From the NCBI RefSeq assembly GCF_031851795.1, contig NZ_CP134696.1:1545576-1609575 (forward strand): a stretch of 64,000 nt of DNA, in the 5' to 3' direction. Source of the stretch: Pontibacter sp. G13. Its GTDB lineage: Bacteria > Bacteroidota > Bacteroidia > J057. This document shows, in pieces, positions 32,846 through 43,324 of this stretch. Position numbers and translations under genes: made by a program. Below the pieces are notes generated by a model. That model was not told the origin of the DNA. It did not search any database and saw nothing but the letters and a program-made list of their open reading frames with translations. How positions within the stretch are numbered: position 1 is the stretch's first letter; each line of letters starts with the position of its first letter.

Positions 32846-32880
32846 CAAAAAACCCTCCAATCGTCTCGATGATTGGAGGG
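32846..32880 (-). terminator. rho-independent terminator of the sigma-factor operon
   Basis: On the minus strand CCCTCCAATC pairs with GATTGGAGGG around ATCGAGAC, followed by TTTTTT. It lies 44 bp past the PKD lipoprotein stop. Confidence 0.88.
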
Positions 32881-32923: not shown

Positions 32924-34063
32924 TCAATCGCCCGGCCAGCCTACAGCAAAAGTGGCTGTACCTTCGAATGGACGGGTCTCCTGTTCGTTGGTAAGCATGG
33001 CCTTAAATCGGGCAGAGACCTGATAGGTCGGCAGTCCGTCTAAATTGGGTTGGTAGGGGGAAACAGACAGAATTTTGAAATAAGCATCCGTGCTCTGGTC
33101 GACGGCCGCGGAAGTCCACCATTCTCCCGAATCATCCATGTGTCTAAGGATGATCGTTTGAAACTGCGAATCTACCGGAGTGGGAAGAGATTCGACCTTG
33201 TAGGTGAAGTTCTGGGAGCAAATGGCCGGATCTGTGGAAATATTCTGACAAATGCGACTCTCACATCCAGCGCCATCGGTGATGCTCAAACAAACCGTGT
33301 GAATGCCATTCTGCGCAAATGTGTACCCCGGATTGCCCAAGGTCGCCCCGAAACCATCGCCGAATTCCCATCGGTATTGAATCGGCCAGGTCCCCTTGCT
33401 CAGAGACTGAAAAGCTACATAGGAACTATTGTCTGACAAGAGGTGTACAAAGTCAGCCTTACAAGGCTTCTTGGCGAGATCAACCTCGTTACAAATGGAA
33501 CTGACACACCCATCCTGCCCCGAGACTTCCATGCACACCAATGCTTTCAGCAGGGAGGAATCCGTATAATCATGGACTGGGTTGGCTTCAGTGGAAATGG
33601 CCCCATCTCCAAAATCCCAATCATAATCCAGCGTATCGAGGGTGCCTGTAGTATCCCCAAAAAAGGAAACCCTGAAAAAGTTGCCAAGGGTTTGAGATCG
33701 ATAATATCTACGTGTGCCTGTTTCCAAAGACGCCTGTACCTCCCAGTCATCTCCGGGGTCAAAGCGTTGGAAATCGCGGATAGTAAATTCCCACTGATCA
33801 TTGCACGAACCACAATCATTGGGGCGGAACTTACCGCCAAACTCCCAGATACCCATATCGTCCTGAGTTGCCCACGTATCCATGTATTGGCGATTTTCAC
33901 CAGCGATCACCAATACCTCCTCAGTCCCGAATGTTCCTTGCATCCTGAACACGGGCAAGCCCGGTTCCGGCTCTGGAAATTCCAATTCGCCACATCCCAG
34001 CAGACTCATCGCTAGAGCGGCCAAGATTCCTATCAAACACGATCTATTGTCGGCTAAAGTCAT
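32924..34063 (-). CDS. PKD-domain lipoprotein, third gene of the ECF sigma operon
   Basis: 379 residues from MTLADNRSC, whose start overlaps the preceding gene's end by 20 bp. A further Met lies nine codons upstream. The lipobox is SLLGC. Two PKD domains follow: one around YDWDFGDGAISTEANPVHDY and one around YRWEFGDGFGATLGNPGYTF. Each closes with a Cys pair (GCVSSICN, GCESRICQ), the same Cys-bearing subtype seen in the two giant PKD proteins upstream. Probably surface or periplasmic; it may cap or anchor those proteins. Confidence 0.8.
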   Translation of the reverse strand: MTLADNRSCLIGILAALAMSLLGCGELEFPEPEPGLPVFRMQGTFGTEEVLVIAGENRQYMDTWATQDDMGIWEFGGKFRPNDCGSCNDQWEFTIRDFQRFDPGDDWEVQASLETGTRRYYRSQTLGNFFRVSFFGDTTGTLDTLDYDWDFGDGAISTEANPVHDYTDSSLLKALVCMEVSGQDGCVSSICNEVDLAKKPCKADFVHLLSDNSSYVAFQSLSKGTWPIQYRWEFGDGFGATLGNPGYTFAQNGIHTVCLSITDGAGCESRICQNISTDPAICSQNFTYKVESLPTPVDSQFQTIILRHMDDSGEWWTSAAVDQSTDAYFKILSVSPYQPNLDGLPTYQVSARFKAMLTNEQETRPFEGTATFAVGWPGD

Positions 34064-35288
34064 AAGAAAGTCCAATTCGGAGTTGAACATTGCGACCTGC
34101 GGGCAGGCCGGTTCCCTGATCCCCTATTCGGGTGAGCGACTGGATGCTTCCGATCGCCGAAGTCGAGAGGTGGATGCCACGGCCTGCGTACCACACATAC
34201 CCAATCGTACCTCCCAGATCCCATGCACGGAACGTCTCACGTCCTCCCCATCCTGTCTGGCTGGAAGTTGCTCCGCTGCCAAAATCATCCCGCTGAATCT
34301 GCGAAACAGAAGTTTTGACATTGAGCAGGTAGGCGGGATTCACGCCGAGTTGGATACTGTGGTGCCCCTTGATTCTATACTGGGCCCAAATCGGGATTTC
34401 CAGATAATGAAGTGCCTCGGGAGAAATGGTGATTTCTTCCTCTCTAAAGCCAAAGTCATACTGGCGGACCGTGTAGGTGGAATCGTGGTTGAGTCCTTGG
34501 CGATGGACATATCTAGCCCCTGTGCCGAATTTCCAGCTGCGGGCTGGCGACATACTCACTCGCAAGCCCACCCAAGGGGTCTGGCTCGACTCGGCTCGCT
34601 GATTGTCTCGTTGGATACCGTGAGCCAAATTCCACCCAGCCTCCACGCCCAAGATGATTCGGCGTTTGGAGGAAAGGTTATTCATCTCCAGATTCGTTTC
34701 GGGCAATCGATGCCCCAATCCCAATTGTTGGGAGGGTACTCGGTAGATATCGCCCAATTCGATGCCTGCTGATTCCTCCGAACCGGGGCCTTCGTCTCGT
34801 GCAGTCCGACTAGTCCTAGGGGGTTCATCCCCTCTGGAAGAACCGAGCTCCGTTTTCATCGCCAAGCTGACTGGGGCTTCCGTCAACGTTTTTGCCCCAG
34901 ATCGAGCGTCTTGGGCTGAAGCAGTTCTCTGCCGACGATGGAACATTGCGGGCGCTTTTTCAAGAGAAATATCTGCCGGATCAGTGCTAGCCAGCGGCAT
35001 CACACTGGATGATAAAGTCATAACGGAATCGCAGTCAACTCCCATCCATTCCTCCATCGCTACCACAGGTTCCACAGGGGTAAAACCCAAGGACCAAATG
35101 GCTGCGCTGACGATGCTACAGCCCACGAGAAACATGGACATCAGCATCCACCAGAAGCGGCGCTTCCGGTTGGGCCCTTGCTCTTGGATGAGTTGTTGGG
35201 CGGCAGCCCAGTACGAGGGATCGTATGGGTATTGGCGGTCTGCGTATGTCTGTTTGACGAGTTCGTCAATGGGATGCTTGCCCTTCAT
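34044..35288 (-). CDS. membrane-anchored beta-barrel-like protein, candidate anti-sigma partner
   Basis: 414 residues. A short cytosolic N-terminus (about 1-43, basic near the membrane: GPNRKRRFWW), one membrane helix (about 45-66, MLMSMFLVGCSIVSAAIWSL) and a disordered linker lead into a C-terminal about 200-residue region with alternating beta-strand pattern. That region ends in LRIGLSYDFSRQ, like outer-membrane barrels. The gene starts within the last 23 bp of the sigma factor gene. Anti-sigma action is inferred from topology and coupling; no known anti-sigma motif is seen. Confidence 0.75.
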   Translation of the reverse strand: MKGKHPIDELVKQTYADRQYPYDPSYWAAAQQLIQEQGPNRKRRFWWMLMSMFLVGCSIVSAAIWSLGFTPVEPVVAMEEWMGVDCDSVMTLSSSVMPLASTDPADISLEKAPAMFHRRQRTASAQDARSGAKTLTEAPVSLAMKTELGSSRGDEPPRTSRTARDEGPGSEESAGIELGDIYRVPSQQLGLGHRLPETNLEMNNLSSKRRIILGVEAGWNLAHGIQRDNQRAESSQTPWVGLRVSMSPARSWKFGTGARYVHRQGLNHDSTYTVRQYDFGFREEEITISPEALHYLEIPIWAQYRIKGHHSIQLGVNPAYLLNVKTSVSQIQRDDFGSGATSSQTGWGGRETFRAWDLGGTIGYVWYAGRGIHLSTSAIGSIQSLTRIGDQGTGLPAGRNVQLRIGLSYDFSRQ

Positions 35289-35856
35289 AGCTATCGCTTG
35301 TGGTTCTGGTTCTATGAGCCAAAATCTGTTCCTTCATTCGTTTTCTGGCGGTTGATACATGCCATTTAGAAGTACCAATCGAAATATCCATCATGGTTGC
35401 GATCTCTTCGTGTGAATATCCATCCACTGCGAAAAGCAGAAATACCTGCCTACTCATCTGGGGAAGTTGCTGCAACATCCATTCGATATCGCCAGCATCT
35501 GATTGGAGTTCAGCCTCATTCAACGTGTGCTGACTGGAACTTCCCTGCAATTCCACCGGGTCCTCGATCTGCACGGTGTCTCGATAAGTTCGATTCTTGC
35601 GATACTCATCGATGACCGTATTGATCGTGATTCGCCTGATCCATGCTTCGAATGGTACGGGATCCTTCCACTGATCCAACTTGGTGAGAATCTTCAGGAA
35701 GGCCTGATTGAGGACCGCGACTGCATCATCGTGATTGTTCAGGTACCGCATGCAGATCGGCATCAGTACTGGAAAGCACTGACGGTAGAGGGTTTCTTGC
35801 CCTCGCTGCTTGCCTTTGAGGCAAAGCCGGATCGTCTTTGGCGAAACTTGAAGCAT
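35266..35856 (-). CDS. ECF-type RNA polymerase sigma factor
   Basis: 196 residues. Region 2 is seen in YLNNHDDAVAVLNQAFLKILTK and FEAWIRRITINTVIDEYRK. Region 4 is the helix-turn-helix MSRQVFLLFAVDGYSHEEIATMMDIS followed by TSKWHVSTARKRMKEQI. The ATG at 35856 is preferred over an in-frame TTG at 35877. It heads a three-gene operon with overlapping reading frames. A promoter-like motif 135 bp upstream recurs before the two giant PKD genes, so autoregulation and a small regulon are likely. Confidence 0.9.
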   Translation of the reverse strand: MLQVSPKTIRLCLKGKQRGQETLYRQCFPVLMPICMRYLNNHDDAVAVLNQAFLKILTKLDQWKDPVPFEAWIRRITINTVIDEYRKNRTYRDTVQIEDPVELQGSSSQHTLNEAELQSDAGDIEWMLQQLPQMSRQVFLLFAVDGYSHEEIATMMDISIGTSKWHVSTARKRMKEQILAHRTRTTSDSYEGQASH

Positions 35857-35991
35857 ACGCGGCACCCAAATTCCCAATGCATAGCAAATTGGGAATCAGG
35901 CTAAAAATACGATGTGACCCTATATTTCCCTTAGGCAGGATGGTGAAATACCGGAATAATCTCGGTATTCACTTATTCCTTCACTGACCCT

Positions 35992-36020
35992 CACGAATGT
36001 CGGATAGGCAAAGGTTGGGT
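35992..36020 (-). promoter_or_regulatory. putative ECF sigma promoter, site 1
   Basis: On the minus strand ACCCAACCTTTG (36009-36020), a 13-base spacer, then CGTG (35992-35995). The AAC/CGT pair and spacing resemble ECF -35 and -10 elements. The identical motif and spacing occur upstream of both giant PKD genes. Confidence 0.7.
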
Positions 36021-36069
36021 ACTGCTGAAAAAAAATCGTTAAAAAGTAATTCAGTAGATTTTCACTCAG

Positions 36070-36256
36070 GGTGCGGATGGCTTGCGGCGGCGTGATGGGC
36101 CTGAAGTGGACTCCGCAGGAGGAGTCTCGGATCTGGGGGCGGCGATCTCTCGCCTCCAGATCCGAGACCGAGCGGTAGCGAGCACGTAAGGGCCAGACCC
36201 CGCGACCATCTTGCCAAGCGCTGCCAAATCCCCAAGTCCGCGGGGGCACGCCCAAA
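36070..36256 (-). repeat. dispersed palindromic element, copy B
   Basis: Read on the minus strand it starts TTTGGGCGTGCCCCCGCG and ends AAGCCATCCGCACC. Stem 1: CGCGGGG (36239-36245) with CCCCGCG (36198-36204). Stem 2 is 13 bp and perfect: GTCTCGGATCTGG (36124-36136) with CCAGATCCGAGAC (36156-36168), capped by a GCGA/TCGC tip. It starts 132 bp past the stop of the giant PKD gene and in its orientation. The rest of the 531-bp gap holds only the ECF promoter and a terminator. Confidence 0.82.
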
Positions 36257-36315
36257 TGGTCCTCAAACCGCTCCATTGCGCATGCTTCTCCCATACAAAC
36301 CCTCCCAACAAGGCA

Positions 36316-36349
36316 CCAAAAATCCCCAGCCAAATACTTGACTGGGGAT
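36316..36349 (-). terminator. rho-independent terminator after the first giant PKD gene
   Basis: On the minus strand ATCCCCAG pairs with CTGGGGAT, followed by TTTTGG. A nearly identical terminator follows the tandem paralogue at 39738. Confidence 0.78.
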
Positions 36350-36387
36350 CAGCTAAATTGAGGTTGATAGATAGAAGATATACGGAA

Positions 36388-39300
36388 TCAATGGATGACT
36401 TGTACTTTCTGGATCAATTGTCCCTGAGCGGATTGGAACCTGAGGAGGTAGAAGCCATCGGCCAGATGGGAAACCGGGAGTTCTAGCTGGTGATCAGTCT
36501 GTAGGCCGGACAGCTTACCCGACTGGATGCGCGTCCCCATCACATGGGTCAGTTCCCAATCAATCTCTTGGGCTTGTGCCACGGTCAGTTCCACCTTCAA
36601 GAAGGTCTTCGCAGGGTTCGGGAATACAGCGAACTGGTCCGTATTCAATCCGCCAAACGAAGAGCTGGTGGACGCAGGAGCAACGGTCAATCCCTGCTCG
36701 TCGACGATAAAATCCACCAGGTCGGCCTGAGGGCTTGCTGCATCCAGCGTCAATTCCCAAGGGGTTGAGAAATATCCAGCAATGTCCACATACGCCTTGT
36801 AGTCCCCCAAAGTCAGGTTGTCGAATGAATAGGTTCCATCCGCCCCACTCACGGCATGCGCAATCGGTGTTTGCTGTGCATCCAACAACACGACCGGAAT
36901 ATCCTCCATGGGCGTGCCGGCCTGCTTATTGGCACCTGCGCTGATCAACCCTCCGATGAACCCCGGGCCTCCGGGATTGGTTCCAGCGATCAGGGAGATT
37001 GTCGGATTGACAACAGAGGTGGCGCCTACCACCGTGCTGGTGGCCATGCTCCAAAGCGGCACATCGCCCAAGTAGGTCGGAAGGTAGTTGGCATAATCTG
37101 GGGCCCCCGGAAGCAAGGCAGCCTTGACGAGGTATGTACCAGAGGGAGCATGGAAAAATTCATAAAACCCTTGCCAGATGAGAGCCGAATCTACCAGATT
37201 CAAGGTAAGTGTCGAGGTGTCGTGCCAAATCAAATAGGCCACTCCGGAGTCTACCGGAAGGGTATCGGTCATCACCCAGCCTGAGATGCTGTAGCCATTG
37301 GACATGGGGATCACCACGGTATCGCAGTGGGTCGAGAAGCAATTGGCCGAGGAATCCATGATCGTCATACACACTACATAGGTTCCGGGGTTGGCGTAGT
37401 TGTGGGTAGGGTTGAAGGCATTGGAGTAATTACCATCGTCGAAGTCCCAAGTCACGAGCGTCCCTCCCGGAGAGAGTGGGTTGGAGAGATTGGTGAATTG
37501 CACGGCGCCCGATCCGGTGATGGTGTAGGAGAAATCAGCCGAGCATACGGGGATACTGGAAACCACCACGGAATCGCAATAGGTATCGCTACAACCCGCC
37601 ACCGTATCTGAGACCGTCAGGCAAACCGTGTATACCCCCACACTGTCATACAGGTGCGTGACAAACGCATTGCTGACATCTCCCGTCAGGGTGTTTCCAT
37701 CACCAAAGTCCCACGTGAATTCATCGTCTGGAGAAAGACCGGTATTGGGATTACCCGAGAACAAAAACTCATTGACACTCAGCTGGCTGATCTGAAAGAA
37801 AGCATCGCACACATCGGTAATCACCGACACAGGCTGTACGGTAGTATCGGCACATCCCGAGGAGTCCGTGATCACCAAGGTCGCAAAGTATACGCCCGGT
37901 GCTGGATAGACATGAATGGGGTTTTGCAAGGTACTGCCCGTACCATCGCCAAAGGCCCAATCCCACGAGACGATAGAAGTGGAACCCGTAGACTGATCCA
38001 AGAATTGAAGCGTATTCACAGCGATGGTGTCAGTCGTGAATGCGGCATTACAGCTCGTCTGCCAAGGGGCCACCTGCACGGTCTGGCAAACCGAATCCAT
38101 GCACCCCAAGGAAGTATCTTCCACGACCAAGCAGACGAGGTAGTTCCCCGGAAGTGCGTATTGATGACTGAGGTTGGAGCCCGTGCCTACATTTCCATCG
38201 CCATAATCCCAAAAATAGGTGGTGGAGCCGGTCGCTGTAGTGGTATCGGCATATCCCAATACCATTCCTTGCACGGTCCAAGGCGTGAAAGATGCCTGAC
38301 AGCCTGTGGGAGGCCCCAAAACCGTGATGGTCTGACAGAAGGAATCTGCACAAGTTCCCGCGAAATCATAGATAGATAGACAGACAGTGTATGGCCCCGG
38401 AGCATTGTAGAAGTGAACCGTATCCACGCCAATGGACGAATTGGTAAACGTCACCACAGTCCCGTCCCCAAAGTCCCAAGTGACCCAAGCGCCCAAAGAG
38501 TTGGACAGTGAATCCGCAGTGAACGCCACTGAATAAGGGCCAGTTTGGTTAGTCCCGAACATTGCGGAACAGGCATTGCTCCCCCCACTCACGGAAACAT
38601 TTGAGCACAGGGTATCCTGACATCCGGAAATGGTGTCTTCCATGATCAAGCAGACCAGATAGTTTCCGGCGCCGGGAAAGGTGTGATTCGGGTTGGCGCC
38701 GCTCGTTCCTGTCCCATCTCCAAAGTCCCAATTGAAAGACAGCGTATTGCCCGGAGCGCTACCGATGGAGGTATTGGTGAATTGGTAGGTCGCCCCACTG
38801 GTATTGTTGAATGTAAAATTGGCACTACAAGTCGCTCCTCCGGCTATCGTGATATTGTAGCAAATGATATCAGAACAGTTGGCCACCGAATCAGTCACTG
38901 TCAGGCAGACAGAATATATCCCGGGCGCGGTGTAGGTATGGCTGGGGCTTACATCCGAGGAGGTAGTTCCGTCGTCGAAGTCCCACACATAGAGAAGTGG
39001 ATTGATGGGAGAAGCTCCTGTGGAATTATTGGTGAATTGGATGGTCGAGCCTCCGGTATTGGCAAAGTTGTAGCTGGCATTGCAACCGGGGTTTCCGGTA
39101 CAGATCGTGAATGTACTAAACAATGAATCAAAGGGCGTGGTGAATGCCATCGTATCAATAACCATCGATCCATTGCAATCAAGTACCCAGACATTCACCT
39201 CCCCAAATCCGGGGACTGCCGGGATGGTTTCCGTCACCGAAAATAGGCCATTGAGCGCAACTGTGGTAGAGTCGAGAATATTCGTATTGCCGCTATAGAT

Positions 39301-39438
39301 ATAGTAATGCACAGTGTAACCCGGCTGGGCAGTGCCTGATGCATCGAGCACTGTGCCAGAAAGGGTCAATGCCTGAAGTTGGTTCCCGCCGAACAGCAAG
39401 GCAGTCATCCAGAGCATTTGGAGAAATTTCTTCATCAT
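36388..39438 (-). CDS. giant PKD-repeat protein with T9SS type A sorting domain (seven PKD units)
   Basis: 1016 residues. Signal peptide (MMKKFLQMLWMTALLFGGNQLQA), an N-terminal beta domain, then seven PKD units of about 85 residues. Each has a W-D-[FY]-[GD]-DG core, a Y-x-x-[PA]-G-x-Y turn and mostly a closing Cys pair (CSDIIC, CQDTLC, CMDSVC). A carboxypeptidase-regulatory-like domain precedes the C-terminal about 80 residues (FAVFPNPAKTFLKVEL ... FYLLRFQSAQGQLIQKVQV), the T9SS sorting signal. Secreted and surface-attached, probably an adhesin or stalk. It is a tandem duplicate of the next gene and has its own ECF-type promoter motif. Confidence 0.9.
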   Translation of the reverse strand: MMKKFLQMLWMTALLFGGNQLQALTLSGTVLDASGTAQPGYTVHYYIYSGNTNILDSTTVALNGLFSVTETIPAVPGFGEVNVWVLDCNGSMVIDTMAFTTPFDSLFSTFTICTGNPGCNASYNFANTGGSTIQFTNNSTGASPINPLLYVWDFDDGTTSSDVSPSHTYTAPGIYSVCLTVTDSVANCSDIICYNITIAGGATCSANFTFNNTSGATYQFTNTSIGSAPGNTLSFNWDFGDGTGTSGANPNHTFPGAGNYLVCLIMEDTISGCQDTLCSNVSVSGGSNACSAMFGTNQTGPYSVAFTADSLSNSLGAWVTWDFGDGTVVTFTNSSIGVDTVHFYNAPGPYTVCLSIYDFAGTCADSFCQTITVLGPPTGCQASFTPWTVQGMVLGYADTTTATGSTTYFWDYGDGNVGTGSNLSHQYALPGNYLVCLVVEDTSLGCMDSVCQTVQVAPWQTSCNAAFTTDTIAVNTLQFLDQSTGSTSIVSWDWAFGDGTGSTLQNPIHVYPAPGVYFATLVITDSSGCADTTVQPVSVITDVCDAFFQISQLSVNEFLFSGNPNTGLSPDDEFTWDFGDGNTLTGDVSNAFVTHLYDSVGVYTVCLTVSDTVAGCSDTYCDSVVVSSIPVCSADFSYTITGSGAVQFTNLSNPLSPGGTLVTWDFDDGNYSNAFNPTHNYANPGTYVVCMTIMDSSANCFSTHCDTVVIPMSNGYSISGWVMTDTLPVDSGVAYLIWHDTSTLTLNLVDSALIWQGFYEFFHAPSGTYLVKAALLPGAPDYANYLPTYLGDVPLWSMATSTVVGATSVVNPTISLIAGTNPGGPGFIGGLISAGANKQAGTPMEDIPVVLLDAQQTPIAHAVSGADGTYSFDNLTLGDYKAYVDIAGYFSTPWELTLDAASPQADLVDFIVDEQGLTVAPASTSSSFGGLNTDQFAVFPNPAKTFLKVELTVAQAQEIDWELTHVMGTRIQSGKLSGLQTDHQLELPVSHLADGFYLLRFQSAQGQLIQKVQVIH

Positions 39439-39527
39439 CCAGATAGGTTAGCATGGGGGATTGATCAGGCAAATGTAGCCACCATTCCCGTTCCGAAAAA
39501 TGGATCACTTGGCCCCTTTCATGCCTA

Positions 39528-39556
39528 CACGATCCCTCCTCCTCCAAAGGTTGGGT
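39528..39556 (-). promoter_or_regulatory. putative ECF sigma promoter, site 2
   Basis: ACCCAACCTTTG (39545-39556), 13 bases, CGTG (39528-39531) on the minus strand, 89 bp upstream of the seven-unit PKD gene. The flanking GC before it and TAGG after CGTG are shared with site 3. Confidence 0.72.
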
Positions 39557-39737
39557 GCCCTAATCCTTTTTTGAAAAAAATCTCCATCATGCTTCTCCCT
39601 CTCCTGCCAGTGGGGGAATCCAATCACGGGTTCTCCGATACAAAACCTTCCGCAAATGTTCATCTCCCCGCTAGTTTCCCTCCTGTCAGCAGGAACATCC
39701 TCCCGTGCCAGTCCCGCAATGAACCTCCGGAAAAGCC

Positions 39738-39771
39738 ATAAAAAATCCCCAGCCATGTATATGACTGGGGA
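39738..39771 (-). terminator. rho-independent terminator after the second giant PKD gene
   Basis: On the minus strand TCCCCAG pairs with CTGGGGA, followed by TTTTTT. It matches the terminator at 36316, so the duplication included the 3' flank. The rest of the gap 39439-39823 holds only the site 2 promoter motif. Confidence 0.78.
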
Positions 39772-39823
39772 CAAACGAAATTGAGGCTGATAGGTAGGTT
39801 AGCCTACATGAAGCATCGTACGC

Positions 39824-42619
39824 CTAGCGGAGTACTTGTACTTTTTGGATCAATTGTCCCTGAGCGGACTGGAATCTGATCAGGTAGAATCCATTGGCCA
39901 AGTTGGAGACATTGAGTTCCATCTGGTGATCTGCACGTTGACCGGACAAGGTACCCGATTGGACACGGGCCCCCATCACATTGGTCAACTCCCAGCTGAT
40001 ATCTTGAGCTTGAGTCAATGTCAGTTCCACTTTCAGAACGCTTTGCGCAGGAACCGGGTAGACTTCGAACTTTTCGGTAGCCAATACCCCTGACAGGGAG
40101 GTAGTCTTGGCAGGAGTGACAGTCTGCTCAACCTCATCGACGATGAAGTCGGAAAGATCCGCGCTTGGATTCGCAGCGTCCAACGTCACCTCCCAAGGAG
40201 TGCCGTGATATCCGGCAATGTCCACATGAACCTTGTATGCGCCCAATGGAAGGTCATTGAATGCGTAAGTTCCATCTGAACCACTGATTGCCTGTGCAAC
40301 CGGAACATCTTGAGCGTCATACAGGATCACCTGAATGCCCATCATTGGCGTGGCAGATTGCTTGTTGGCACCTGCACTGATCAAGCCGCCAATGAATCCA
40401 GGACCTCCAGGGTTGGTACCCGCAATCAGCGAGATGGTTGGATTGACGACAGAAGCGCTATTCACGACAGTCGTAGTCGCCAAGTTCCAGAGTGCTACAT
40501 CCCCCAAGTAGGTTGGGAGATAGTTCGCATAGTTGAAGGTACCCGGAAGCAATGCGGCTTTGACGAGATAGGAACCGGAAGACACATTTGAGAATTGGTA
40601 GTTCCCCGCCCAGATGAAGGTAGAATCGACCAAGTTCAAGCTTTGAGTGACGGTATCGTGCCAGATCAGGTATGCGACCCCAGAGTCCACAGGCATAGAG
40701 TCTGCCTCCACGTATCCAGAGATGCTATAAGTGGTGGGCAGCGAAATCACGATGGTATCGCAATGGGAGGCAAAGCAGTTGGACATGGAGTCGATGATCG
40801 TCATACACACAGCGTATGTACCAGAGGTAGCATAGGTGTGGGTCGGATCAAATGCATTGGAAGAATTGCCATCGCCGAAGTTCCAATACACCAAGGTAGT
40901 GGCTGGCGAAAGTGGGTTGGACAAGTTGGTGAATTGTACCGTGCCTGCACCAGTGAGGGTATAGGAGAAGTCCGGAGCACATACTGGGATGGTAGTCACC
41001 ACCACGGAATCGCAATAGGTGTCGATACAGCCCGCGAGCGTGTCTTCAACTGTCAAGCATACCAGATAGGTGCCTACTGCGGTGTAGATATGGTTGATAT
41101 TGGCAAAGTTGGAGGCACCGGAAACAGTGTTTCCATCCCCAAAGTCCCACGTGAATTCATCGTCTGGAGAAAGACCTGTATTGGAGTTTCCGGAGAAGTA
41201 GAAATGATTGTAGCTGATCTGGTAGGTCGAGAAGGTCGCATCACATTCATCTGTCACCACTATCACAGGCTGTACCGTAGTGTCTCCACATCCGGAGATA
41301 TCTGAAATCACCAAGGTCACAAAATAGGTTCCAGCAGCAGGATAGACATGCAGGGGATTTTGAAGCGTACTGGTGGTACCATCTCCAAATGCCCAGTACC
41401 AAGAGTTGATCGTGCTGCCAGAAGTGGACTGATCGTAGAACTGGACAGTGTTCACAGCTACGGTATCAGTCGAGAAAGCAGCGTTACACGTATTTTGCCA
41501 AGGAGCAACCTGTATAGTCTGGCATACCGAGTCGATACATCCTACACTCGTATCAGCTACGACCAAACACACGTTGTAGACACCCGGTGCAGAATACTGG
41601 TGGTTGAGGTTGGAACCGGTTCCGGTATTTCCATCGCCATAATCCCAGAAATAGGTGGTAGAGCCGGTCGCTCCGGTGGTGTCGGCATATCCCAATGCCA
41701 TGCCCTGCGTCGTCCAAGCACTGAAGGAAGCCTGACATGGCTGTGGGCCCAATACAGTGAAGGTCTGGCATGTTGAATCCGCACAGGTTCCCGCGAAGTC
41801 ATAGACATATAAGCACGCAGTGTAGGTACCGGGCGTGGAGTACCAGTGGATGGTATCTACCGAAATGGAAGAGTTGGTGAAGGTTACCACAACTCCGTCG
41901 CCAAAGTCCCAAGTCACCCAGGCCCCCAAAGAGTTGAACAAGGAATCCGCCGTGAACTCCATCAGATTCGGGCCAATTGGATTGACGCTGAAAAGGGCCG
42001 AACAGGAATTGGTGTTTCCACTACCTACTGTGAGATTGTAGCAGATCACATCGGAGCAGTTGGCGACCGTATCCGTCACCGTCAGGCAAACTGTATAGGT
42101 ACCCGGTCCCGGGAAAGTGTGCGTAGGGTTCTGAGCGGAAGAGGTCGTTCCGTCATTGAAGTCCCAAGAATAGAAGAGAGGACTGGCAGGAGAACCCCCA
42201 GTGGAGTAGTTGGTAAATTGGAAGGTCGATCCACCAATGTTGGCGAAGTTGTAGCTGGCGTTACAGCCTGGATTGCCCGTACATACCGTGAAGGTGCTGA
42301 ATACGCTGTCATAGGGCGAAATGAAGCTCACGGTATCCATGATCATCGATCCGTTACAGTCATACACCCAAAGCAGCACATCCCCAAATCCGGGAACTGC
42401 TGGTACGGTTTCAGTAGCTGAATACCACCCATTGATGGCGACGAAGGCAGTATCCTGAATGAAGGTATTGCCGGAGATAATTTCGTAGTACACGGGGTAC
42501 CCCACTTGGGCGGTACCGGAGGCGTCGAGAACAGTACCCGAGAGGGTCAATGCCTGGACTTGACTTCCGCCGAGTAGTAGGGCGGTCATCCAGAGCATCT
42601 GGAGTAATTTCTTCATCAT
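39824..42619 (-). CDS. giant PKD-repeat protein with T9SS type A sorting domain (six PKD units)
   Basis: 931 residues, collinear with the 1016-residue neighbour. It shares the signal peptide (MMKKLLQMLWMTALLLGG), N-terminal domain, regulatory-like domain and T9SS tail (FEVYPVPAQSVLKVEL ... FYLIRFQSAQGQLIQKVQV). It has six PKD units, lacking the equivalent of the neighbour's second unit; the length difference of 85 residues is one unit. The YPNP of the sorting domain is YPVP here. It is probably secreted by the type IX system and expressed with its twin through the same promoter motif. Confidence 0.9.
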   Translation of the reverse strand: MMKKLLQMLWMTALLLGGSQVQALTLSGTVLDASGTAQVGYPVYYEIISGNTFIQDTAFVAINGWYSATETVPAVPGFGDVLLWVYDCNGSMIMDTVSFISPYDSVFSTFTVCTGNPGCNASYNFANIGGSTFQFTNYSTGGSPASPLFYSWDFNDGTTSSAQNPTHTFPGPGTYTVCLTVTDTVANCSDVICYNLTVGSGNTNSCSALFSVNPIGPNLMEFTADSLFNSLGAWVTWDFGDGVVVTFTNSSISVDTIHWYSTPGTYTACLYVYDFAGTCADSTCQTFTVLGPQPCQASFSAWTTQGMALGYADTTGATGSTTYFWDYGDGNTGTGSNLNHQYSAPGVYNVCLVVADTSVGCIDSVCQTIQVAPWQNTCNAAFSTDTVAVNTVQFYDQSTSGSTINSWYWAFGDGTTSTLQNPLHVYPAAGTYFVTLVISDISGCGDTTVQPVIVVTDECDATFSTYQISYNHFYFSGNSNTGLSPDDEFTWDFGDGNTVSGASNFANINHIYTAVGTYLVCLTVEDTLAGCIDTYCDSVVVTTIPVCAPDFSYTLTGAGTVQFTNLSNPLSPATTLVYWNFGDGNSSNAFDPTHTYATSGTYAVCMTIIDSMSNCFASHCDTIVISLPTTYSISGYVEADSMPVDSGVAYLIWHDTVTQSLNLVDSTFIWAGNYQFSNVSSGSYLVKAALLPGTFNYANYLPTYLGDVALWNLATTTVVNSASVVNPTISLIAGTNPGGPGFIGGLISAGANKQSATPMMGIQVILYDAQDVPVAQAISGSDGTYAFNDLPLGAYKVHVDIAGYHGTPWEVTLDAANPSADLSDFIVDEVEQTVTPAKTTSLSGVLATEKFEVYPVPAQSVLKVELTLTQAQDISWELTNVMGARVQSGTLSGQRADHQMELNVSNLANGFYLIRFQSAQGQLIQKVQVLR

Positions 42620-42717
42620 GCGGATGAGTTAAGAATAGGTTGATCTAGGAGAGCAGGCGAATATGCGTACAATTCCTCCTGTGAATAATCGGGAAGGAAT
42701 TCCCTTTCACCCCCCTA

Positions 42718-42746
42718 CACGATCCGGTTTGCGCCAAAGGTTGGGT
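42718..42746 (-). promoter_or_regulatory. putative ECF sigma promoter, site 3
   Basis: ACCCAACCTTTG (42735-42746), 13 bases, CGTG (42718-42721) on the minus strand, 98 bp upstream of the six-unit PKD gene. The spacer sequence differs from sites 1 and 2 while the two boxes are identical. Confidence 0.72.
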
Positions 42747-42851: not shown

Positions 42852-43037
42852 TTGGGCGTGCCCCAGCGTGCTTGACGGGATGGCCCCGCTTGGAGATTGA
42901 GTCGCTGGGTCGCTCCCTTCCGTGCTCGTGTACACTCGGTCGGGCATATGGGGGCGAGAGATCGCCACCCCCAGATGCCCGACTCCGCCTGACGGCGGCC
43001 ACTTCAGGCAGCTCACGCCTCACTTGCCATCCGCACC
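42852..43037 (+). repeat. dispersed palindromic element, copy C
   Basis: Starts TTGGGCGTGCCCCAGCG and ends TTGCCATCCGCACC. Stem 1 has changed on both arms: CCCAGCG (42862-42868) with CGCTGGG (42903-42909). Stem 2: GTCGGGCAT (42939-42947) with ATGCCCGAC (42975-42983), extended by TGGGGG/CCCCCA and GGCGA/TCGCC. It is the only copy not in the orientation of a gene ending just upstream. Confidence 0.82.
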
Positions 43038-43105
43038 CTTGTTTCGTTCCATTTCCATCTCCTCAAAACTGTGAAGACATAGCCGCGAATACGCCCAACC
43101 AAGCT

Positions 43106-43324
43106 TCTGCCCATGCACACTTGCAGCAAGCCTAGCACCACAGTCCCATCATCCAAATCCTCCGAAGCTGTTCAGGGGGAGATAGGCGACAGCGAAAGGG
43201 AGCAGGGGGAGGTTCTCAGGAAGCCATGTTTGCAGGGCATAGTGGGGCTATGGCCGAAAAAATGGCGAACTGAGGTTCTACCCATGCACACTTGCAGCAA
43301 GCCTAGCACTCCCTGAACAGCTTC
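43106..43324. repeat. direct repeat pair with inverted repeat, unknown element
   Basis: A 33-nt segment beginning TTCTGCCCATGCACACTTGC (43106-43138) recurs at 43277-43309 with one mismatch, 171 bp apart. A perfect 14-bp inverted repeat, GAAGCTGTTCAGGG (43164-43177) with CCCTGAACAGCTTC (43311-43324), brackets most of the interval. No gene lies inside. It could be the trace of a small mobile element or a local duplication. Confidence 0.6.

What the first reader, a model, noticed from the sequence alone, without database searches (positions are those of the whole stretch)
35266..42746. Shared bipartite promoter motif links an ECF sigma operon with two giant T9SS-secreted PKD proteins
On the minus strand ACCCAACCTTTG, exactly 13 bases, then CGTG occurs at 36020-35992, 39556-39528 and 42746-42718. 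These sit 135, 89 and 98 bp before the sigma factor gene and the two PKD genes. The spacers differ, so this is not simply duplicated flank, although sites 2 and 3 share some extra bases. AAC/CGT elements with this spacing resemble ECF -35 and -10 boxes. The sigma operon also encodes a membrane-anchored barrel protein and a PKD lipoprotein with the same Cys-pair PKD subtype as the giants. I infer a self-contained regulon: envelope sensor, sigma factor and T9SS-secreted surface fibres.
Basis: partly seen in the sequence, partly recalled or inferred. Interest (0 to 1): 0.85.

Follow-up and report, generated by a model that had tools for sequence, protein, structure and literature searches.

The report
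Sigma-factor regulon of secreted surface proteins
A bacterial sigma factor, whose predicted anti-sigma partner spans both membranes, appears to switch on its own operon and a few large secreted surface proteins through one promoter sequence that is conserved across many Bacteroidota, giving a testable link between outer-membrane sensing and type IX secretion cargo.

Summary
The motif occurs four times in the 7.67-Mb genome, plus a fifth site with one mismatch. All five lie 83-135 bp before the sigma gene or one of four T9SS sorting-domain proteins; two of these are a separate tandem pair 370 kb away. Relaxed motif: 5 hits, reversed control 0.

The sigma operon has the architecture of Das/Dma (ECF21) modules of Bacteroides: ECF sigma; anti-sigma-like protein with N-terminal helices, TM helix, disordered tether and OmpA-like barrel; and a PKD lipoprotein. 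Relatives keep this order, many with a T9SS gene directly upstream.

The core promoter ACCCAACC-N16/17-CGTG(TA) is conserved across Saprospiraceae-like and Flavobacteriales lineages: strong sites at 53 of 74 sigma loci, 0 on the opposite strand, 0.33 in shuffles. A motif-only scan of 395 genomes again landed before sigma genes, T9SS proteins and lipoproteins, with some background.

This is a phylogenetically footprinted ECF regulon, a T9SS-linked variant of the Das/Dma kind. Sigma-promoter recognition, signal and 'fibre' function are inferred. 'Giant' is relative: the genome has a 7274-aa PKD ORF outside the regulon.

The parts
35992..36020 (-). promoter-like site 1, ACCCAACCTTTG-N13-CGTG, 135 bp before the sigma gene; A/T-rich tract just upstream
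35266..35856 (-). ECF sigma factor gene (das-like), 196 aa from ATG
   Evidence: Pfam Sigma70_r2 and r4_2 over cut-off; TIGR02937 over cut-off
34044..35288 (-). Dma-like anti-sigma candidate, 414 aa: helices 6-36, TM helix 40-66, disordered 67-207, barrel 211-414; start overlaps the end of the sigma gene
32924..34090 (-). PKD lipoprotein, third gene of the operon; start overlaps the end of dma
32853..32880 (-). terminator-like hairpin after the operon
   Evidence: consensus match only
39528..39556 (-). promoter-like site 2, 89 bp before PKD protein A
36388..39438 (-). PKD protein A, 1016 aa, about seven PKD domains, T9SS type A sorting domain
36301..36374 (-). repeat of the terminator-like sequence after PKD protein A
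   Evidence: family D8
42718..42746 (-). promoter-like site 3, 98 bp before PKD protein B
39824..42619 (-). PKD protein B, 931 aa, about six PKD domains, T9SS type A sorting domain
39745..39772 (-). terminator-like hairpin after PKD protein B
   Evidence: consensus match only

Best explanation
ACCCAACC-N16/17-CGTG(TA) is the -35/-10 promoter read by the ECF sigma factor encoded at 35266-35856. That sigma factor belongs to a Das/Dma-type module. At rest it is held by the short N-terminal domain of the adjacent protein, which crosses the inner membrane once, spans the periplasm with a disordered tether and ends in an outer-membrane barrel. A signal at the outer membrane, probably sensed by the barrel together with the co-encoded PKD lipoprotein, releases the sigma factor. 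It then transcribes its own operon (positive feedback) and single-gene units for T9SS-exported PKD/SprB-rich surface proteins: two here and two 370 kb away. Shown: motif, genome-wide confinement, phylogenetic conservation, operon and domain anatomy. Inferred: sigma-promoter recognition, sequestration by the N-terminal domain, the signal, and the surface function.
For: Five sites genome-wide, all before the sigma gene or T9SS sorting-domain genes, with unrelated flanks. The same promoter precedes the orthologous operon, or its leading T9SS gene, in relatives; strong sites at 53/74 loci against 0 on the opposite strand and 0.33 in shuffles. Strong sites occur only in this sigma clade, none in 12 paralogous factors; a paralogue in this genome has GCAACC/GCGTTAA boxes. 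A motif-only scan of the class lands before sigma genes, T9SS-CTD genes and lipoproteins. Dma architecture by AlphaFold2 and PDB fold match; published Dma description.
Against: No transcript or protein data. About a quarter of the class-scan sites have no sensible gene downstream, and the reversed pattern gave about 39 hits (13 in one genome), so that scan carries background. Some loci of the clade have weak or no motif (17 of 86 rows). Binding of the N-terminal domain to the sigma factor is not tested.
Confidence: 0.83

Rival explanations
1. The motif is a promoter, but for another ECF sigma factor of the genome; the das-like gene is only one member of that factor's regulon.
For: G000 has 18 sigma-like matches to this protein; cross-recognition between ECF factors is common (general knowledge).
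Against: The motif precedes only one sigma gene in the genome. It follows this sigma clade across lineages and is absent from 12 paralogues; one paralogue has different boxes.
Confidence: 0.08
2. The motif is a binding site of another regulator (repressor or activator) shared by surface-protein genes, not a sigma promoter.
For: No start sites are mapped; position 83-135 bp before start codons would also suit an operator.
Against: Two blocks with a nearly fixed 16-17 base gap, AAC and CGT cores and an upstream A/T tract fit an ECF promoter; the blocks are not palindromic and always point towards the gene.
Confidence: 0.05
3. Chance or recently duplicated flanking DNA.
For: The two window PKD genes are tandem paralogues with partly similar upstream DNA (D11).
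Against: Flanks and spacers are otherwise at chance identity; shuffles and reversed controls give about 0; sites recur in distant families.
Confidence: 0.02

Closest known systems
[quoted passage not shown] the Dma1 paper, PNAS 2024, was not held)
   Same: ECF sigma gene followed by a protein with N-terminal domain, TM helix, long disordered tether and C-terminal beta-barrel; a third gene in the operon; operon and neighbouring genes most strongly induced when Dma2 is removed.
   Different: Reported outputs there are vesiculation, NigD1 and polysaccharide-utilisation loci. Here the predicted outputs are T9SS surface proteins, the third gene is a PKD lipoprotein, and a strict promoter ACCCAACC-N16/17-CGTG(TA) defines the regulon.
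PorXY-SigP of Porphyromonas gingivalis (PMC4800418, PMC7712824)
   Same: An ECF sigma factor tied to type IX secretion.
   Different: SigP works downstream of a two-component system and controls T9SS component proteins; here the predicted targets are cargo proteins and the partner is a Dma-like anti-sigma factor.
Motif SM6 promoters of Flavobacterium psychrophilum (PMC9723704)
   Same: ECF-type CGT box at T9SS-related genes and at one sigma/anti-sigma pair.
   Different: Listed targets include T9SS core components and PorU rather than PKD cargo; whether its first box resembles ACCCAACC was not compared.

Membership tests
Das/Dma module | ECF sigma factor gene directly beside the anti-sigma gene | tested here: met
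   conserved in nearly all 80 loci
Das/Dma module | N-terminal domain, TM helix, disordered tether, C-terminal barrel in one protein | tested here: met
   AlphaFold2 with 59 relatives; barrel matches OmpA/Ail/OmpX; PF13568 in 47/59
Das/Dma module | sigma factor belongs to group ECF21 | not tested
   no ECF-group models at hand; general ECF model met
Das/Dma module | sequence relationship to B. thetaiotaomicron Dma1/Dma2 and Das1/Das2 | not tested
Das/Dma module | the anti-sigma protein binds and inhibits its sigma factor and reaches the outer membrane | not testable with these tools
   needs binding, deletion and localisation experiments
ECF-type promoter | AAC core, 16-18 base gap to a CGT core, oriented towards the gene, also before the sigma factor's own operon | tested here: met
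ECF-type promoter | transcription starts just after the second box | not testable with these tools
   needs 5'-end RNA sequencing
T9SS type A cargo | C-terminal type A sorting domain (TIGR04183 / PF18962) | tested here: met
   both window PKD proteins and one distant-pair member over cut-off; 34 of 40 downstream proteins match TIGR04183 at E 0.01
PorXY-SigP | the sigma factor controls T9SS machinery genes | tested here: not met
   in this genome the five sites precede only the sigma operon and cargo genes

The most novel reading that the evidence does not exclude
The Dma barrel plus its PKD lipoprotein directly monitors delivery of T9SS-exported PKD proteins at the cell surface and reports it, through a single polypeptide spanning both membranes, to the sigma factor that makes them: a cargo-specific secretion checkpoint widespread in T9SS-bearing Bacteroidota. 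The operon order cargo-sigma-Dma-lipoprotein and the shared PKD subtype fit this but do not show it.
Probability: 0.25. Interest if true: 0.85.

Novelty: new variant of a known kind. Interest (0 to 1): 0.62.

Why it matters
Dma proteins were described only recently, and their direct promoters and signals are largely open. A strict promoter conserved across lineages lets the regulon be read from sequence in many genomes, and here it points to T9SS surface cargo and a conserved lipoprotein third component. That gives immediate tests of what the dual-membrane-spanning barrel senses.

Tried and rejected
A genome-contig search with the single window Dma sequence found no relatives: too divergent, so the sigma alignment was used instead. 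Two-mismatch versions of the full motif are background. The 12-base first half is specific to this genome; in relatives only ACCCAACC and CGTG(TA) are constrained, so exact-motif scans of relatives under-report. Hits inside or antisense to long ORFs, or with no gene downstream, were treated as chance. Upstream neighbours with ApbC/ParA or PfkB domains were not taken as regulon members; where checked the promoter lies between such a neighbour and the sigma gene. Duplicated flanks as the cause were rejected. The PDB similarity of the lipoprotein to Aureispira grappling-hook fragments was not taken as function: it reflects shared PKD domains with poor overall fit (TM 0.16-0.18).

Full report
OBSERVATION. 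In the 7,674,920-base genome there are four exact copies and a fifth with one mismatch. With two mismatches the count sinks to the level of the reversed control, 12 against 9. CCAACCTTT with a gap of 12-16 and CGTG returns exactly these five sites and none in the control.

THE OTHER TWO SITES. They lie 370 kb away (L013 = C1:1200000-1219900), 131 and 83 bp before two tandem genes for ~1000-aa proteins. One of these proteins carries DUF7619, DUF11, a SprB repeat and a T9SS type A sorting domain, all over the cut-offs; its partner is 61% identical to it. They are only 18-19% identical to the window PKD proteins over the alignment, so the shared promoter is not simply carried along with duplicated genes. 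Flanks of all five sites are at near-chance identity. The genome has at least 150 T9SS sorting-domain matches, so this regulon is a small, specific subset of cargo.

THE SIGMA OPERON. The first gene is an ECF sigma factor. The second is a 414-aa protein. AlphaFold2 on 59 relatives gives two short helices (6-36), a TM helix (40-66), a low-confidence disordered stretch (67-207) and a confident barrel (211-414). The barrel resembles OmpA, Ail and OmpX, and 47 of 59 members match PF13568. This is the published architecture of Dma anti-sigma factors, which are encoded beside ECF21 sigma factors (PMC13088901). The third gene is a PKD lipoprotein: 44 members from such operons align with an invariant lipobox cysteine, 27 match PKD_4, and the model has mean pLDDT 90.7. 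Genes 1-2 and 2-3 overlap. Terminator-like hairpins follow the operon (32880-32853) and PKD protein B (39772-39745); a repeat of the latter sequence follows PKD protein A (D8). Each PKD gene thus appears to be its own transcription unit.

CONSERVATION IN THE FAMILY. In other genera the orthologous sigma factors (46-56% identical) mostly sit in the order T9SS PKD protein - sigma - Dma - PKD lipoprotein. ACCCAACC-N16/17-CGTG lies before the T9SS gene, or before the sigma gene and again before a neighbouring PKD gene. Genome G007 has one exact copy of the full motif, 37 bp before a Cys-PKD protein. Extended by TA, the pattern gives 13 hits in the family and 0 control hits. Eleven precede T9SS/PKD genes or a sigma gene; two lie too near contig ends for the gene to be seen. 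It gives 0 in nine genomes of other families of the order.

BREADTH. A sigma-profile scan gave 80 named loci, mostly Saprospiraceae-like and Flavobacteriales. Nearly all have a TM-containing Dma-like partner, and most a lipoprotein next. A strong same-strand motif lies within 4.5 kb upstream of the sigma gene in 53 of 74 loci, against 0 on the opposite strand and 0.33 expected from shuffles. In a tree of 98 sigma factors every strong site is in one clade (86 rows, support 100/98) and none is among 12 paralogous factors of the family; 17 rows of the clade lack a clear site, at least one because the searched stretch was too short (L024, compare). One paralogue in this genome has GCAACC and GCGTTAA boxes instead. 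Of 60 upstream neighbours, 26 have a T9SS type A sorting domain.

MOTIF-ONLY REGULON TEST. ACCCAACC-N16-CGTGTA in 395 genomes of the class gave 61 sites, many in tandem. By my count of the table the reversed pattern gave 39, of which 13 were in one genome and the rest single. Outside the family (55 sites) 14 precede sigma genes, 21 precede T9SS sorting-domain proteins by a simple sequence pattern, four precede possible lipoproteins, and about a quarter have no sensible gene and are taken as chance. In a set of 40 non-sigma downstream proteins, inside and outside the family, 34 match TIGR04183 and 31 match PKD.

HOW IT PROBABLY WORKS. Shown: promoter-like motif, confinement, footprint, anatomy. 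Inferred: the Dma-like N-terminus holds the sigma factor; an outer-membrane event sensed by the barrel, perhaps with the lipoprotein, releases it; the sigma factor then drives its own operon and the T9SS surface proteins. What the signal is, and whether the PKD proteins form fibres, adhesins or a coat, is open.

LIMITS. No expression data. Genomes in the class scans are unnamed. The 80 loci were chosen by conserved sigma peptides. ECF21 assignment and homology to B. thetaiotaomicron Das/Dma could not be tested, and the original Dma1 paper was not held.

Noticed in passing
window 36089-36255 (-) and 42852-43019 (inverted copy): A ~167-bp palindrome-rich intergenic element, just upstream of promoter sites 1 and 3; at least 40 long copies in the genome, 76-92% identical. 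Looks like a dispersed REP-type element.
   Followed up: partly
window 43079-43138 and 43250-43309: A 60-nt direct repeat (82% identical) in the gap upstream of PKD protein B.
   Followed up: no
G000:C1 about 2137000-2157000 and 6691000-6698300: Open frames of 7274 and 2930 aa packed with PKD-type matches, far larger than the window PKD proteins and without any of the five promoter sites.
   Followed up: no
G000:C1:5067510-5068193 and 5510078-5510563: Two further partial Dma-like matches directly beside ECF sigma genes (5068231 and 5510604), so the genome probably has several Das/Dma-like pairs.
   Followed up: partly
L041 (G000:C1:3858925-3862431): Paralogous ECF sigma gene with GCAACC/GCGTTAA boxes 49 bp before its start, followed by a protein in which the short W-containing anti-sigma-like motif seems to be repeated several times.
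   Followed up: no
L207-L219 (genomes of family f15, genus g25): Tandem pairs of secreted PKD/T9SS-CTD genes, each with its own ACCCAACC-N16-CGTGTA site 17-47 bp before the start codon.
   Followed up: partly
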